From: Nitrosomonadales bacterium
GTDB lineage: Bacteria > Pseudomonadota > Gammaproteobacteria > Burkholderiales > Gallionellaceae
NCBI GenBank assembly: GCA_016218415.1
Contig: JACRED010000024.1
Location: 1 to 64,000, forward strand
Direction of reading: 5' to 3'
DNA length: 64,000 nt
In this document: one piece after another, positions 21,155-54,270 of the stretch
Layout: each line of letters opens with the position of its first letter
Numbering within the stretch: the first letter of the stretch is position 1
Notes under the pieces: generated by a model
Told to the model about the DNA's origin: nothing
The model's database searches: none
The model's input: the letters and a program-made list of their open reading frames with translations, nothing else
Translations under genes and position numbers: made by a program

Positions 21155-21208
21155 GAAGACGACGGGTTGCTTTCTTCCGATTTTATTGCAAAGGTCAAAC
21201 AACCCGTT

Positions 21209-21287
21209 AGGGGCGCGATTTAACCAGCGACTTGGCTGGCGTCTTTTGTCAGCTTAGTCGAATGGCTATGCAAAGCTATCGCGCCCT
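21209..21287. repeat. GGGGCGCGAT palindrome split by a nested repeat
   Basis: AGGGGCGCGAT at 21209-21219 and ATCGCGCCCT at 21278-21287 are the two arms of the same palindrome seen intact at 22355-22384. They are separated by 58 bp that match another repeat family. This looks like insertion of one element at the centre of another. Confidence 0.65.
21220..21277 (+). repeat. ~57-bp dispersed repeat, copy A
   Basis: The sequence from TTAACCAGCGACTTGGCTGG to GAATGGCTATGCAAAGCT recurs nearly base for base, in inverse orientation, at 54067-54121. It recurs in diverged form at 47136-47228. Its two halves form an imperfect hairpin (CGACTTGGCTGGC against GTCAGCTTAGTCG). Confidence 0.8.
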
Positions 21288-21308
21288 GCTTTATTTATGT
21301 ACCCGAAA

Positions 21309-21335
21309 AAGGGCGCGATGAATCGCACCCCTGCA
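21309..21335. repeat. Palindromic repeat downstream of sppA
   Basis: AAGGGCGCGATGAATCGCACCCCTGCA is a one-mismatch copy of the perfect palindrome at 22355-22384. It lies 9 bp past the sppA stop and could act as a transcription terminator or mRNA 3'-end hairpin. Confidence 0.75.
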
Positions 21336-22354: not shown

Positions 22355-22384
22355 TGCAGGGGCGCGATGAATCGCGCCCCTGCA
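22355..22384. repeat. Perfect 30-bp palindrome upstream of sppA
   Basis: TGCAGGGGCGCGAT-GA-ATCGCGCCCCTGCA has 14-bp perfect arms. It lies between the Gph-like gene and sppA on the minus strand. A near-copy follows sppA at 21309, and a third, interrupted copy is at 21209-21287. Confidence 0.85.
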
Positions 22385-25518: not shown

Positions 25519-26631
25519 ATGACCCCGGACTGGCAGGATTTCCTGACGCAACGCGGCGCGACCATCGCATCCGGCGTGGCACAAAATTTTGGCGACCTAT
25601 CTGCAGAACTGGGTGCGACGGCACAGGGCACGGTGCTGTGCGATCTGGGCCAATTCGGCACATTGCGCGTATCCGGAGAAGAGGCGCAGACTTTCCTGCA
25701 AAACCTGCTGAGCAACGACATCCGCGCCGTCACCTCGACCCGCGCGCAATTCAGCAGCCTGAACACCGCCAAGGGACGGATGCTGGCCTCTATGCTGATC
25801 TGGCGCGAGGGCGACGATTACCTGCTGCAACTGCCGCGCGAACTGTGCGAACCGATACGCAAGAAATTAAGCATGTATGTGCTGCGCGCCAGGGTGAAAG
25901 TCGCGGACGCCAGCGAAGGGATCGTGACGCTCGGCCTGTCCGGCGCGAACGCGCGGGAGATTTTACAGGGGCAATTCGGCGAATTGCCGCAACTGCCACT
26001 CTCCCTTGCCGTTCGCCCTGAGCTTGTCGAAGGGCTGGACTCAACATCAGAGCAGGCTTCGACAGGCTCAGCCCGAACGGATATTTTTATAGGAAGCGTG
26101 CTGAAAATCAGCAACACGCGCTTCCAGATCAGCACCACACCGCAACAGGCGCAGGAGCTGTGGAACAAGCTTGCCGCCCAGGCGCGCCCCGTCGGCAGCG
26201 CCTGCTGGGACTGGCTCAACATCCGCGCCGGCATACCGGTGATCCTGCCGCAGACCCAGGAACAGTTCGTCGCGCAGATGGTGAATTTCGACCTGATAAA
26301 CGGGGTGAGTTTCAGCAAGGGCTGCTATCCCGGACAGGAGATCGTCGCGCGCACGCAATACCTCGGCAAGCTCAAGCGGCGCATGTATCTTGCCCACATC
26401 GATGGCCCCGCAGAGCCGCAGCCCGGCGACGAATTGTTCAGCGCGGATATGGAAGGCCAGGCCAGCGGCATGGTCGCCAATGTCGCCCCGGCGCCTTCCG
26501 GCGGATACGACGTGCTGACCGTGGTGCAGATCGCCAGCCGTGACGCATATCCGGTGCATATCAGCTCGCTGCTGGGCGCACGCCTGGCGTTTCAGGCACT
26601 GCCCTACCAGATTCCCGACCAGCCATCATGA
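25519..26631 (+). CDS. ygfZ: Folate-binding Fe-S repair/tRNA modification protein YgfZ
   Basis: This ~370-residue protein of the GcvT superfamily carries the YgfZ signature KGCYPGQEIVAR near residue 270, including the invariant Cys. YgfZ binds tetrahydrofolate and supports Fe-S enzymes such as MiaB. The N-terminal part has DLGQFGTLRVSGEEAQTFLQ, as in the family. Between LSLAVRPELVEG and STGSARTD about 23 codons are supplied by a palindromic repeat inserted in frame (26011-26078), giving extra residues not expected in the family. The start at 25519 (MTPDWQDFLTQRG) was chosen over 25432. The stop overlaps the next start as ATGA. Confidence 0.9.
   Translation: MTPDWQDFLTQRGATIASGVAQNFGDLSAELGATAQGTVLCDLGQFGTLRVSGEEAQTFLQNLLSNDIRAVTSTRAQFSSLNTAKGRMLASMLIWREGDDYLLQLPRELCEPIRKKLSMYVLRARVKVADASEGIVTLGLSGANAREILQGQFGELPQLPLSLAVRPELVEGLDSTSEQASTGSARTDIFIGSVLKISNTRFQISTTPQQAQELWNKLAAQARPVGSACWDWLNIRAGIPVILPQTQEQFVAQMVNFDLINGVSFSKGCYPGQEIVARTQYLGKLKRRMYLAHIDGPAEPQPGDELFSADMEGQASGMVANVAPAPSGGYDVLTVVQIASRDAYPVHISSLLGARLAFQALPYQIPDQPS
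26011..26078. repeat. Inverted-repeat element inserted within ygfZ
   Basis: GTTCGCCCTGAGCTTGTCGA(AGGGC) and the inverted arm GCTTCGACAGGCTCAGCCCG(AAC) flank about 20 bp. This is a common intergenic repeat of proteobacteria, here in frame inside a coding region. One arm recurs at 54016-54040. Confidence 0.85.
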
Positions 26632-45562: not shown

Positions 45563-47167
45563 TTGTTGCAATTTGACACGCTGATCATCGGCAGCGGCCT
45601 TGCCGGGCTGACGCTGGCCCTCAAGTTGGCCGACCACCAGAAAGTGGGGCTGATTACCAAAAAGGCCCTGCTGGATGGCGCCAGCGATTGGGCACAGGGG
45701 GGTATCGCAGCCGTATTGTCCGATGGCGACTCGCTGGACGCGCACATTCAGGACACCCTCACCGCAGGAGCCGGCCTTTGCGATATGGCTGCCACGCGCT
45801 ATGCCGTCGAACACGGCAAGGCATCTATCGACTGGCTGATCGCCCAGGGCGTTCCGTTTACCCGGGATGTATCCAATGAACTGGGTTATCACCTGACCCG
45901 CGAAGGGGGGCACAGCCGCCGCCGCATCATCCACGCCGCCGATGCGACCGGCCACGTGGTGCAGGAGACACTTTCCGCCCGCGTACTGAGACATCCGAAC
46001 ATCACCGTGCTGGAAAAGCACATGTCGGTCGACCTGATCACCGGCAAGAAGCTGGGCATTCCGGATAACCGCTGCTACGGCGCATACGCGCTGAACAATC
46101 TGAGCGACGAAGTCGTCACCATCGCCGCGCAAAACACCATACTGGCGACCGGCGGCAGCGGCAAGGTCTATCTCTACACCACCAACCCGGATACTGCAAC
46201 CGGGGATGGTATCGCGATGGCATGGCGCGCCGGTTGCCGCGTCGCCAACATGGAGTTCATCCAGTTCCATCCCACCTGCCTGTATCACCCGCACGCCAAG
46301 TCTTTTTTGATCAGCGAGGCGGTGCGCGGCGAGGGCGGCATCCTGAAACTGCCTGACGGAACCCGCTTCATGCCCGCCCACGACGAGCGCGCGGAACTCG
46401 CTCCGCGCGATGTCGTGGCCAGGGCGATCGATTTCGAAATGAAAAAACGCGGGCTGGATTGCGTGTACCTGGATATCTCGCATCAGTCGGTCGAGTTTCT
46501 GCAGGAACATTTTCCGACCATCTATGCGCGCTGCCTCAGCCTGGGCATCAACATCAGCAAGGAGCCGATCCCGGTCGTGCCTGCGGCACACTACACCTGC
46601 GGCGGCGTGGTCGCCGATCTGCATGCCCGCACCGACGTGGGAAATCTGTATGCGGTAGGCGAAACCGCCTACAGCGGCTTGCACGGGGCCAACAGGCTGG
46701 CCAGCAACTCGCTGCTGGAATGCCTGGTATTCGCGGATGCTGCCGTGCGTGATATTCTGGGCAAGCCGCGCCAGGCCATGCCCACCCTGCCCGGATGGGA
46801 CGAGAGCCGCGTGACCGATGCCGACGAACAGATCGTCATCTCGCACAACTGGGCCGAGTTACGCCATTTCATGTGGGATTATGTCGGCATCGTGCGCACC
46901 AACAAACGTCTGCAACGCGCCGAGCATCGCATCCAGTTGCTGCAGGATGAGATCAACGAATACTACAGCAACTTCCATATCAGTTCGGATCTGCTGGAGC
47001 TGCGCAATCTGGTACTGAACGCGGAATTGATCGTAAAAAGCGCACTGTCCCGGCACGAGAGTCGCGGCCTGCATTTCAGCAAGGACTACCCGGAGACACT
47101 GGCGAATCCGCAACCGACGATACTGTCTCCGGGCTATAACCAATCACTTGGCAGCTTGCTGCCTTAG
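45563..47167 (+). CDS. nadB: L-aspartate oxidase
   Basis: This FAD enzyme oxidises L-aspartate to iminoaspartate in de novo NAD synthesis. It has the dinucleotide motif [20 protein letters not shown] at the very N-terminus, [23 protein letters not shown]-like [20 protein letters not shown], and [20 protein letters not shown]. No ATG lies just before the Rossmann motif. A TTG at 45563 or 45566 gives the normal start (~534 aa); ATG 45494 would add 23 residues. The last codons ([11 protein letters not shown]) fall inside a copy of a dispersed repeat. It is divergent from rpoE, a linkage also common in gammaproteobacteria. Confidence 0.92.
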
Positions 47168-47228
47168 TGAGATGGCTATAACCAGCCGCTTGGCCATCGT
47201 TCTTTGGTGGCTTAGCGGAATGGCTAGT
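47136..47228 (+). repeat. ~57-bp dispersed repeat, copies C1 and C2 (tandem, diverged)
   Basis: ATAACCAATCACTTGGCAGC...CTTAGTGAGATGGCTAT and ATAACCAGCCGCTTGGCCAT...GCTTAGCGGAATGGCTAG follow one another head to tail. Both match the frame TAACCAGCnnCTTGGC...GCTTAGnnGAATGGCTA of copies at 21220 and 54067. C1 supplies the last 11 codons and the stop of nadB. Confidence 0.65.
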
Positions 47229-47247
47229 TGCTTCATCAGTAGTTACA

Positions 47248-47664
47248 TCAGGCGAACTTCAGACGAACGCACAGCTCGCGAAATTCGTCCCCATTCAGCG
47301 CATCGGGAAAGACAGCCCGGGAAACCGCCCGGCGATGACCGTCCGGTGTGATGCGCAGCACAACAAAACAGGGGCAGACGACGGTCATTTTTTCGACCTG
47401 TCCCGCGAAATGCCGTCCGTCACGGGTGGTGATTGACACCCCGCCACCATCCAGCGTAATCCCGGCCCATGAATCCGGGAGCAGCCGCCAAGAATCCCGC
47501 GCCAGATGGTAAAGCAGGCTGGCCAGAATCAGCGCTAACACCGCCGCTTTAACGACAACGGGGATGGCTGTCGCAGATACCGAGATTGCAGCGACCGAAT
47601 GCAGCACGAGCAGTACCATGGCAAAGCGCGGAGACGACACTATCGCCATATCCAGGGTAGCCAT
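47248..47664 (-). CDS. YgfX/CptA-like membrane protein
   Basis: This 138-residue protein has two adjacent TM helices at residues ~15-55 and a soluble C-terminal beta-rich domain (WRLLPDSWAGITLDGGGVSI then HFAGQVEKMTVVCPCFVVLR). This is the layout of YgfX (CptA), an inner-membrane protein encoded with SdhE and often near nadB/rpoE. No sdhE is adjacent here. YgfX has been described as a toxin acting on FtsZ/MreB, and alternatively as an inner-membrane partner of SdhE; neither can be tested from sequence. It is convergent with nadB, with the repeat copies between. Confidence 0.65.
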   Translation of the reverse strand: MATLDMAIVSSPRFAMVLLVLHSVAAISVSATAIPVVVKAAVLALILASLLYHLARDSWRLLPDSWAGITLDGGGVSITTRDGRHFAGQVEKMTVVCPCFVVLRITPDGHRRAVSRAVFPDALNGDEFRELCVRLKFA

Positions 47665-52298: not shown

Positions 52299-53948
52299 CT
52301 AGCCTACTATTGGTTTAATCGATTCCGCTATCAAACTCGCGCCCAGCTCGGCCTGCGCCTCGCGCACAAAACTGTCGTTCGCAATCGCATCGCTCGCCTG
52401 CTGCTGCCTGAATTCCTTGTTCTGCTGTTCTATCACCGCCGGGGTTGCCGCTTCAGGTTTCCCCAGCACGATGCTCAGCTTGACCGGCTTGGCGAAATAT
52501 TCGCCCAGCGCCGCCTGCAATTTATCGGTCGCCATTTTGTTGGCTTGCAGGTGCTTTTGCTCCTGCGACAGACACAGCGTAACCTGCCCGTCGGTAAAAC
52601 TTTGCAATACACAGTGCTTCGCCAACTGCTGCGCCATGCCCTGCACATTCAACTGCGTCAGCAACACGCCCCAGTCCGGCTGGCTACCTGAAGCTACGCC
52701 ACCGGCAGCGGGAGCTTCCGCAACAGATACAGGCTTCGCACTCGCCGCCACATATGAGGCAGCGGGTGACGCGGCAACAGATGCCATCGGCTGCGGCGCA
52801 GCGGATTGGGGAACAACCCTGGCCGGGGCAACGCTCGCCGCACCCTTGCCCGGCGCGCCATTGCCCGGTGCAAAGGCCAGCATGCGCAACAGCGTCATCG
52901 TAAAGCCCGCATATTCGTCGGGCGCCAGGTCGATCTCGTCGCGCCCGTGGATCGCGATCTGGTAATACAGCTGCACGTCTTCCGGCGCAAATGCCTGCGC
53001 CAGTTCCAGCAACCGCACGCGTTCCGGCTCGTCGTCGGCAATCGCCTGCGGTACGGTCTGCGCCAGCGCGATGCGGTGCAGCAGCGTCGCCAGTTCCTGC
53101 AATGCGCTATCAAAGGCAATGCTGCGACTTGCCATGTTGTCGGCGATGCCCAGCAGCGCCGCACCGTCCTGCGCGCGCAACGCCGCCAGCAGGTCGAACA
53201 GGTAACTCTGGTCTATCGCGCCCAGCATGGTGCGCACCACCGCTTCTTCCACCTTGTTCGCGGAGAAGGCGATCGCCTGATCCATCAGGCTCAACGCATC
53301 GCGCATGCTGCCCTGCGCCGCGCGCGCGATCAGCGCGATTGCGCCCTGTTCGAATGAAATCTGCTCCTGCTCCAGCACATATTGCAAATGCCCGGCGATC
53401 AACGCGGGCGGCAATTGCTTCAGGTTGAATTGCAAGCAGCGCGACAGCACCGTGACGGGAATCTTCTGCGGGTCGGTGGTGGCGAGGATGAACTTCACAT
53501 GGCCCGGCGGCTCTTCCAGCGTCTTCAGCATCGCGTTGAAAGCCGACTTCGACAGCATGTGCACCTCGTCGATGATGTACACCTTGAAACGCGCGCTGGT
53601 CGGCGCATACAGCGCGCTCTCCAGCAGCTCGCGCATATTGTCCACCTGCGTGTTCGACGCGGCGTCCAGCTCCACCAGATCGACGAAACGCCCGCTGTCA
53701 ATCTCCCTGCAGGCGCTGCACTGGCCGCAGGGCATCGCGGTGATCCCGTTAAGACAATTCAGCGACTTCGCGAAAATGCGCGCGATCGTCGTCTTGCCGA
53801 CTCCGCGCGTGCCGGTAAACAGATAGGCGTGATGCAGGCGGTTCTGCGTCAGCGCGTTGCTCAGCGCACGCACGACATGCTCCTGCCCCGCCAGTTGCTC
53901 GAAGGTCTTGGGACGCCATTTGCGGGCTAGAACCGTGGTTGCAGACAA
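52299..53948 (-). CDS. dnaX: DNA polymerase III subunit tau/gamma
   Basis: This 549-residue clamp-loader ATPase has Walker A TGTRGVGKTTIARI, a zinc module (CLNGITAMPCGQCSACREID), Walker B YIIDEVHMLSKSAFNAML and sensor 1 FILATTDPQKIPVTVLSRCL. A Pro/Ala-rich linker follows residue ~370, then a C-terminal tau-type domain. No obvious slippery A-tract for a gamma frameshift was noticed, but this was not checked exhaustively. It is the first gene of dnaX-ybaB-recR-rluB. The SRP RNA lies about 220 bp upstream on the same strand, as in many betaproteobacteria. Confidence 0.95.
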   Translation of the reverse strand: MSATTVLARKWRPKTFEQLAGQEHVVRALSNALTQNRLHHAYLFTGTRGVGKTTIARIFAKSLNCLNGITAMPCGQCSACREIDSGRFVDLVELDAASNTQVDNMRELLESALYAPTSARFKVYIIDEVHMLSKSAFNAMLKTLEEPPGHVKFILATTDPQKIPVTVLSRCLQFNLKQLPPALIAGHLQYVLEQEQISFEQGAIALIARAAQGSMRDALSLMDQAIAFSANKVEEAVVRTMLGAIDQSYLFDLLAALRAQDGAALLGIADNMASRSIAFDSALQELATLLHRIALAQTVPQAIADDEPERVRLLELAQAFAPEDVQLYYQIAIHGRDEIDLAPDEYAGFTMTLLRMLAFAPGNGAPGKGAASVAPARVVPQSAAPQPMASVAASPAASYVAASAKPVSVAEAPAAGGVASGSQPDWGVLLTQLNVQGMAQQLAKHCVLQSFTDGQVTLCLSQEQKHLQANKMATDKLQAALGEYFAKPVKLSIVLGKPEAATPAVIEQQNKEFRQQQASDAIANDSFVREAQAELGASLIAESIKPIVG

Positions 53949-54015
53949 GATAGCGCCGATCTAGAAGGTGGACGGGGAGATGGACACGGGCAAGTGCACT
54001 TCGAATTTAAAGGCC

Positions 54016-54040
54016 GTTCGCCCTGAGCTTGTCGAAGGGT
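54016..54040. repeat. Single arm of the GTTCGCCCTGAGCTTGTCGA repeat
   Basis: This is one arm of the element found complete inside ygfZ at 26011-26078. It lies in the dnaX 5' region (53949-54172), which otherwise contains only the ~57-bp repeat copy B and no gene. Confidence 0.75.
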
Positions 54041-54066: not shown

Positions 54067-54121
54067 GGCTTTGCATAGCCATCGACTAAGCTGGCAAACG
54101 ACGCCAGCAAGTCGCTGGTTA
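54067..54121 (-). repeat. ~57-bp dispersed repeat, copy B
   Basis: The minus-strand sequence TAACCAGCGACTTGCTGGCG...CAGCTTAGTCGATGGCTATG, ending CAAAGCC, matches copy A at 21220-21277 except for a few substitutions and two single-base deletions. It sits between the SRP RNA gene and dnaX. Confidence 0.8.
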
Positions 54122-54172
54122 CAACCAGACCTACAACTGAACGATACATCATCGTGCACTCACCCCAATAGG

Positions 54173-54270
54173 AGGCGAGCCTTACCCCCGGCACTTGCAG
54201 TAAGTGGCTGTGGCTGCTTCCTTCCGGACCTGACCAGATTCACCACCCTGCAATGCGAGGAGGCCCGCCA
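54173..54270 (-). ncRNA. ffs: Signal recognition particle RNA (4.5S, small bacterial type)
   Basis: The minus strand contains GGTCAGGTCCGGAAGGAAGC, the invariant SRP RNA domain IV core with a GGAA tetraloop. The ends TGGCGGGCCT and AGGCTCGCC pair to close a ~97-nt hairpin. Internal complementary blocks (CATTGCAGGG against GCAAGTGCC) also fit. The RNA binds Ffh and targets membrane proteins to FtsY. It lies upstream of dnaX. Ends are set from the closing helix and may be off by a few bases. Confidence 0.92.

What the first reader, a model, noticed from the sequence alone, without database searches (positions are those of the whole stretch)
21220..21277. New ~57-bp dispersed repeat family at three loci, one copy nested in another palindrome
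Copies at 21220-21277, 54067-54121 (inverse) and 47136-47228 (two diverged tandem copies) share TAACCAGCnnCTTGGC...GCTTAGnnGAATGGCTA and fold as imperfect hairpins. Copy A separates the two arms of a GGGGCGCGAT/ATCGCGCCCT palindrome, which is intact elsewhere, implying transposition into it. This behaves like a small REP/MITE-type element.
Basis: seen in the sequence. Interest (0 to 1): 0.62.

Follow-up and report, generated by a model that had tools for sequence, protein, structure and literature searches.

The report
Self-nesting miniature hairpin insertion elements
Short (about 55-60 bp) hairpin-shaped DNA pieces have inserted themselves, exactly and without duplicating any target DNA, at dozens of places in the genomes of iron-oxidising Gallionella-type bacteria, preferring other repeats and even their own copies, and no enzyme that would move them could be found.

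Summary
The window holds four copies of a 42-48 nt imperfect hairpin; this genome has 25, and 102 of 120 Gallionellaceae genomes carry it (0 to >50 copies). The stem shows strong compensatory change. The mobile unit is hairpin plus tail: type S1 ends in GTNGTTYCAYCA (12 nt), S2 in TGCAAAGC (8 nt). Cutting out core+tail re-creates 'empty' sequences for 133 of 177 copies: insertion is precise, with no net target duplication. S1 enters at (C/G)A|R, often in older dispersed repeats (including REPs) or in its own copies. Tandem hairpins followed by as many tails are nested insertions; window copy B is one and splits the nadB stop codon. That site is empty in most relatives and nested to different depths in others. 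S1 also occurs in other Burkholderiales families with a re-paired stem and the same tail. No mobilising enzyme was found: Y1/RAYT genes do not track copy number, and a complete genome with 34 copies lacks Y1, IS110 and reverse-transcriptase genes. Best reading: a new variant of REP/MITE-like element, moved in trans as single-stranded hairpins by an unidentified enzyme.

The parts
21221..21268 (+). copy A, hairpin core
   Evidence: R1 model 72.2 bits, E 2.4e-14; folds at -22.2 kcal/mol, z -4.3
21269..21276 (+). copy A, S2 tail TGCAAAGC
   Evidence: shared by copy C and by L002, L006, L045, L108, L138 (some with one change); its removal with the core restores the host palindrome
21208..21220 (+). 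left arm of host REP-like palindrome (TAGGGGCGCGATT)
   Evidence: read from sequence; unoccupied versions in L035, L036 and others
21277..21287 (+). right arm of host REP-like palindrome (TATCGCGCCCT)
   Evidence: as above
47137..47178 (+). copy B, outer hairpin core (B1); its insertion split the TAG stop codon of nadB
   Evidence: R1 47.1 bits; orthologous site empty in relatives
47179..47226 (+). copy B, inner nested hairpin core (B2)
   Evidence: R1 68.7 bits; lies exactly between B1 core and B1 tail
47227..47238 (+). S1 tail of B2 (GTTGCTTCATCA)
   Evidence: sequence; tail consensus GTNGTTYCAYCA from 160 copies
47239..47250 (+). S1 tail of B1 (GTAGTTACATCA)
   Evidence: same tail and same junction GGCGAACTT in orthologous L243, L250
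54076..54121 (-). copy C, hairpin core, between dnaX and the SRP RNA gene
   Evidence: R1 53.5 bits; SRP RNA 54171-54269; dnaX 52299-53948
54068..54075 (-). copy C, S2 tail TGCAAAGC; flanks GGTTG|CAACC form a palindrome when joined
   Evidence: sequence; five junction-spanning matches, best is palindromic GTCGGGTTTCAACCCGAC

Best explanation
These are non-autonomous mobile elements of about 54-60 bp: an imperfect hairpin plus a short 3' tail, with no gene. SHOWN: the hairpin is maintained by compensatory changes; the unit of gain is exactly core+tail; insertion leaves no net target duplication or deletion; S1 enters between (C/G)A and a purine; dispersed repeats, including REP-like palindromes and earlier copies of the element, are preferred targets; sites are polymorphic within one genus. 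INFERRED: the element is moved in trans by an enzyme that recognises the folded single strand, cuts after CA at the tail end and after (C/G)A in the target, and joins the strand directly, as HUH (Y1-type) transposases do. Extruded palindromes would be favoured targets because they expose single strands. The conserved GTNG next to the hairpin foot may help choose the CA site, as GTAG does in REP processing. S2 uses the same hairpin with another tail and enters hairpin loops. The enzyme is not identified and may be lost from many genomes.
For: Hairpin: 11 of 17 pairs with two-sided changes, 95.9% of cells paired against 82.2% shuffled and at most 40% slid; across families 12 of 18 pairs, including outer-stem swaps TAAGCA/TGCTTA and CAGCCA/TGGCTG. 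Boundaries: when the deleted length is scanned, exact joined-flank hits peak at core+12 nt (80 of 159) and core+13 (23), at most 6 at other lengths; 133 of 177 joined flanks found overall. Target: A 94% at -1, purine 99% at +1. Repeats as targets: 38 of 108 sites match at least 3 other loci against 35 of 528 intergenic A|R controls, p 1e-13. Polymorphism and nesting at nadB: most of 30 relatives empty, one S1 in L243 and L250, a further S1 and S2 nested inside the same element in L261. Copy number 0 to >50 within one genus. Guide logic: T2 and G4 of GTAG are proposed to select CA sites in a Marinomonas REP system (PMC8266576); here G1, T2, G4 are 96-100% and position 3 is free.
Against: No Y1 (PF01797) gene in complete G044 (34 copies) or complete G057 (12), while complete G058 has 13 Y1 matches and no copy; Spearman rho 0.04 over 75 genomes. 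GTNG is 3' of the hairpin, whereas REPs carry GTAG 5'. Orientation to replication is not significantly biased (42:61, p 0.076). Only 34% of S1 sites have a perfect stem of 5 bp or more at the junction against 23% of controls, so hairpin targeting as such is weakly shown. Most empty sites are paralogous repeats.
Confidence: 0.5

Rival explanations
1. Classical REP/RAYT system: the hairpins are REPs mobilised by a Y1 REP-associated tyrosine transposase coded in the same genomes.
For: Hairpin with a conserved GTNG beside it, no target duplication, Y1 genes present in 91 of 120 family genomes.
Against: Copy number and Y1 number are uncorrelated; several high-copy genomes, one complete, have no Y1; a complete Y1-rich genome has no copies. 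Motif polarity is reversed. Genes between neighbouring copies look like housekeeping genes.
Confidence: 0.15
2. Passive spread: a few old insertions into dispersed repeats were copied to other repeat copies by gene conversion, or moved as passengers of mobile host repeats.
For: Many copies sit in repeat families; composites such as copy A with its palindrome, copy B as a pair, and the G245 composite recur as units.
Against: 70 distinct target sequences among 140 S1 copies not directly behind a core, many not in any shared repeat; insertions inside the element's own stems (TAACCA|ATGACTT and GGGTTA|GTCAG in L046) and inside the nadB stop codon with orthologous empty sites.
Confidence: 0.15
3. 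An IS110/IS1111-type recombinase with a bridge RNA inserts the units; IS110 elements are known to favour REPs and make no duplication.
For: REP-like targets; no duplication.
Against: No PF01548 match in G044, G057, G061, G056, G050, G028, G040 or G083, all with copies; many in copy-free G067 and G058.
Confidence: 0.05
4. Not mobile: hairpins kept as RNA regulatory or termination elements downstream of genes.
For: Covarying stem with G-U pairs; enriched between genes.
Against: No run of T after the hairpin; precise empty sites and nesting.
Confidence: 0.05

Closest known systems
GTAG-tagged REPs and REPINs with RAYT/TnpA_REP (PMC3733652, PMC8266576)
   Same: short imperfect hairpins between genes, conserved tetranucleotide beside the stem, no coding capacity; some REP families are reported inside other palindromes
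   Different: GTNG lies 3' of the hairpin; a longer 12-nt conserved tail; single units that nest in each other instead of inverted dimers; no RAYT association
IS200/IS605-derived miniature elements such as PATEs (known to me; papers listed not read)
   Same: non-autonomous, hairpin-based, no target duplication
   Different: the hairpin begins at the element's first base and is single; no fixed tetranucleotide target and no parental IS200/IS605 copy recognised
MITEs
   Same: small, gene-less, multicopy, presumably moved in trans
   Different: no target duplication; no parental transposon found
IS elements that use REPs as targets
   Same: palindromic repeats as insertion sites
   Different: no gene; the target is only (C/G)A|R and varied in sequence; IS110 genes absent from several copy-rich genomes

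Membership tests
GTAG REP (RAYT-dependent) | 20-40 nt palindrome with unpaired GTAG at the 5' foot of the hairpin | tested here: not met
   hairpin is 42-48 nt; GTNG (GTAG in 83 of 160 copies) is at the 3' foot
GTAG REP (RAYT-dependent) | associated Y1 transposase gene in the genome, flanked by the repeat | tested here: not met
   no correlation (rho 0.04); complete G044 and G057 lack Y1
GTAG REP (RAYT-dependent) | stem irregularities conserved despite covariation (group 2 REPs) | tested here: met
   T/T mismatch and 2-nt bulge conserved while stems covary
MITE | target-site duplication | tested here: not met
   exact joined flanks at core+12, no net gain; a 1-bp duplication of A cannot be told from none
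MITE | ends shared with a gene-carrying transposon | tested here: inconclusive
   no gene-carrying form in 1.2 Mb of loci or in the G044 clusters; not every genome was read
IS200/IS605-derived element (PATE-like) | no duplication, insertion 3' of a fixed tetra- or pentanucleotide | tested here: inconclusive
   no duplication: met; target fixed only at A|R with weak G at -4 and C/G at -2
IS200/IS605-derived element (PATE-like) | bias in orientation relative to replication | tested here: inconclusive
   42 co-directional, 61 opposite, p 0.076
IS110/IS1111 element | DEDD recombinase encoded or present in the genome | tested here: not met
   element has no gene; PF01548 absent from eight copy-bearing genomes
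integron attC site | RYYYAAC / GTTRRRY core boxes and integron integrase | not tested
   core boxes are not apparent in the consensus; integrase not searched

The most novel reading that the evidence does not exclude
A new kind of non-autonomous mobile element, spread through several Burkholderiales families, whose preferred targets are dispersed repeats and its own earlier copies, moved by an enzyme outside the known Y1, IS110 and reverse-transcriptase groups.
Probability: 0.3. Interest if true: 0.8.

Novelty: new variant of a known kind. Interest (0 to 1): 0.6.

Why it matters
It gives a large natural record of insertion by a gene-less hairpin: nested copies act like strata, and precise empty sites define the ends nearly to the base. 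It shows that REP-like repeats can be landing pads for a second element, which explains composite palindromes that look complex by eye. The missing enzyme is a sharp, testable question, since copy number varies from 0 to over 50 within one genus.

Tried and rejected
RAYT/Y1 as cognate enzyme (PF01797 over 120 genomes; rejected as a requirement). IS110 and reverse transcriptase on 22 genomes: no association. Search for a gene-carrying parent by unpaired half-elements and by genes between neighbouring copies: none; loose half-patterns gave mainly chance matches. Replication-strand bias as a test for single-strand transposition: inconclusive. Folding z-scores of S1 targets: median only -0.6, so a hairpin is not required. 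A first control for repeat targeting was too lenient (35% of random points) and was replaced by intergenic A|R controls. An orthologous test for copy A failed because the upstream flank is not conserved. Rfam finds only the SRP RNA in the window. Plasmids: none; viral contigs: one. Literature: no paper found on such repeats in Gallionella; the library is open-access only.

Full report
WHAT IS THERE. The three loci hold four hairpin cores: A 21221-21268 (+), B 47137-47178 and 47179-47226 (+), C 54076-54121 (-). Each folds far better than shuffled sequence. The window lies in a 2.5 Mb, 47-contig genome (G000). A 71-nt probe gave 21 matches, about 16 of them with E below 1e-3, and a covariance model (R1) found 25 copies at E<=1e-3.

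WHO HAS IT. In the family, 102 of 120 genomes are positive; counts run from 0 to >50 (the search saturates at about 50) and vary as widely within the window's genus. In the order, 24 of 300 are positive, including genomes of seven other families. There the outer stem is re-paired (TAAGCA/TGCTTA, CAAGCA/TGCTTG, CAGCCA/TGGCTG) but the S1 tail is kept; S1 tails were read in families f15, f21, f22 and f43 and, degenerate, in f32. The element is almost absent from viral contigs (1) and not found in plasmids.

STRUCTURE. Of 17 pairs in 25 diverse cores, 11 change on both sides; 95.9% of cells pair, against 82.2% for shuffles and 12-40% for slid partners. The T/T mismatch and the bulge next to the foot are conserved while the stems drift. 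Two loop forms occur (GTNNTTT and CTTG).

THE MOBILE UNIT. Cores are followed by one of two tails. S1: GTNGTTYCAYCA (positions 1, 2, 4, 9, 11 at 96-100% in 160 copies; copies were picked allowing 3 mismatches, so this is conditional). S2: TGCAAAGC. When core+tail is cut out in silico and the flanks joined, 133 of 177 copies match an unoccupied sequence elsewhere across the junction. A scan of cut lengths is sharp: 80 of 159 S1 copies match without gaps at core+12, 23 at core+13, almost none at other lengths. So insertion adds exactly the element, with no net duplication; a 1-bp duplication of the terminal A cannot be excluded because both junctions carry A. S1 sites read (C/G)A|R.

TARGETS. 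35% of S1 sites match at least three other loci, against 6.6% of intergenic A|R controls (p 1e-13). Examples: CTCCCGCTTGCGGGA|GAGGG, CCTGA|GCCTGTCGAAGG, CTTCGACA|GGCTCAG, GGGGGA|GGGTTAGGG, GTGCCCGGCCA|AAAG. Local folding is stronger than in controls (median -12.6 against -8.5 kcal/mol), but sites are also richer in G+C (0.57 against 0.50) and only a third have a perfect stem at the junction. Thus 'prefers repeats' is shown and 'prefers hairpins' is suggested. S2 enters hairpin loops in 8 of 12 distinct sites, for instance GGGGCGCGATT|TATCGCGCCC (copy A), GGTTG|CAACC (copy C) and the loop GCGT|GTTTGC of other cores (L060, L118).

NESTING. Two cores in a row are followed by two tails (window B, L027, L028, L108, L130): the second unit went in at GGCTA|GTAG, between core and tail of the first. 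L046 has units inside the stems TAACCA|ATGACTT and GGGTTA|GTCAG. L014 has an S2 in the loop of an S1. The orthologous nadB site in the genus gives an order of events: empty in most (for example L245, L247, L257, L264, L267, L270, with the downstream gene conserved), a single S1 with the same tail in L243 and L250, and that same element carrying another S1 and an S2 in L261. In the window the insertion split the TAG stop of nadB (L-aspartate oxidase); the frame now runs on for 10 residues ([10 protein letters not shown]) to a stop supplied by the element. L248 has an independent S1 in the opposite orientation nearby.

THE ENZYME. Over 75 genomes of at least 95% completeness Y1 counts and copy numbers are unrelated (rho 0.04, p 0.73). 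Complete G044 (34 copies) has no Y1, IS110 or reverse-transcriptase match; complete G057 (12 copies) likewise. The element clusters of G044 lie among genes that look like groEL, tol, aroA, rpsA and similar (named by eye from their sequences), with no evident transposase. Orientation relative to replication is 42:61 (p 0.076), with origin and terminus set by dnaA and GC skew: inconclusive.

MECHANISM. No duplication, a covarying hairpin with fixed irregularities, a cut after CA at the tail and (C/G)A in the target, GTNG at the hairpin foot and palindromic landing sites together resemble single-strand HUH transposition. In a Marinomonas REP system GTAG positions 2 and 4 are proposed to select CA cleavage sites, and GTGG still cuts CA (PMC8266576); here positions 2 and 4 are fixed and 3 is free. 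The polarity is however reversed and no Y1 gene is required. I give about 0.95 to 'mobile element with precise insertion', about 0.4 to the HUH-like route, and 0.5 to the whole statement.

PRECEDENT. REP families lying inside other palindromes are on record for A. variabilis, T. roseum and H. neapolitanus (PMC3733652), and IS elements are known to use REPs as targets (cited there). What appears new here is the defined unit with its tail, the self-nesting, the orthologous series and the lack of a Y1 partner.

Noticed in passing
window 26008-26034 and 54013-54039: Identical 27-bp repeat GCCGTTCGCCCTGAGCTTGTCGAAGGG, a dispersed palindrome that is itself an S1 target in relatives (L031, L039, L172).
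   Followed up: partly
window 47135-47167: The insertion splits the stop codon of nadB and supplies a new one, adding 10 residues to the protein.
   Followed up: yes
window 21206-21332 and 22360-22384: REP-like palindromes (GGGGCGCGATGAATCGCGCCCC) in inverted pairs, REPIN-like; a ~125-bp composite including copy A recurs in many relatives.
   Followed up: partly
G000:C30:35032-35389 (L022, L023): The only Y1 transposase match of the genome lies in two overlapping frames and looks frameshifted.
   Followed up: no
L004, L111, L121: Cores without any tail at TGA|...|TGTCGAA or TATCGAA in the same host palindrome in three genomes: possibly a third type or a deletion product.
   Followed up: no
L226-L228 (G309): Short tandem arrays of S2-type hairpins with 49-nt period (core + TGCAAGGC).
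   Followed up: no
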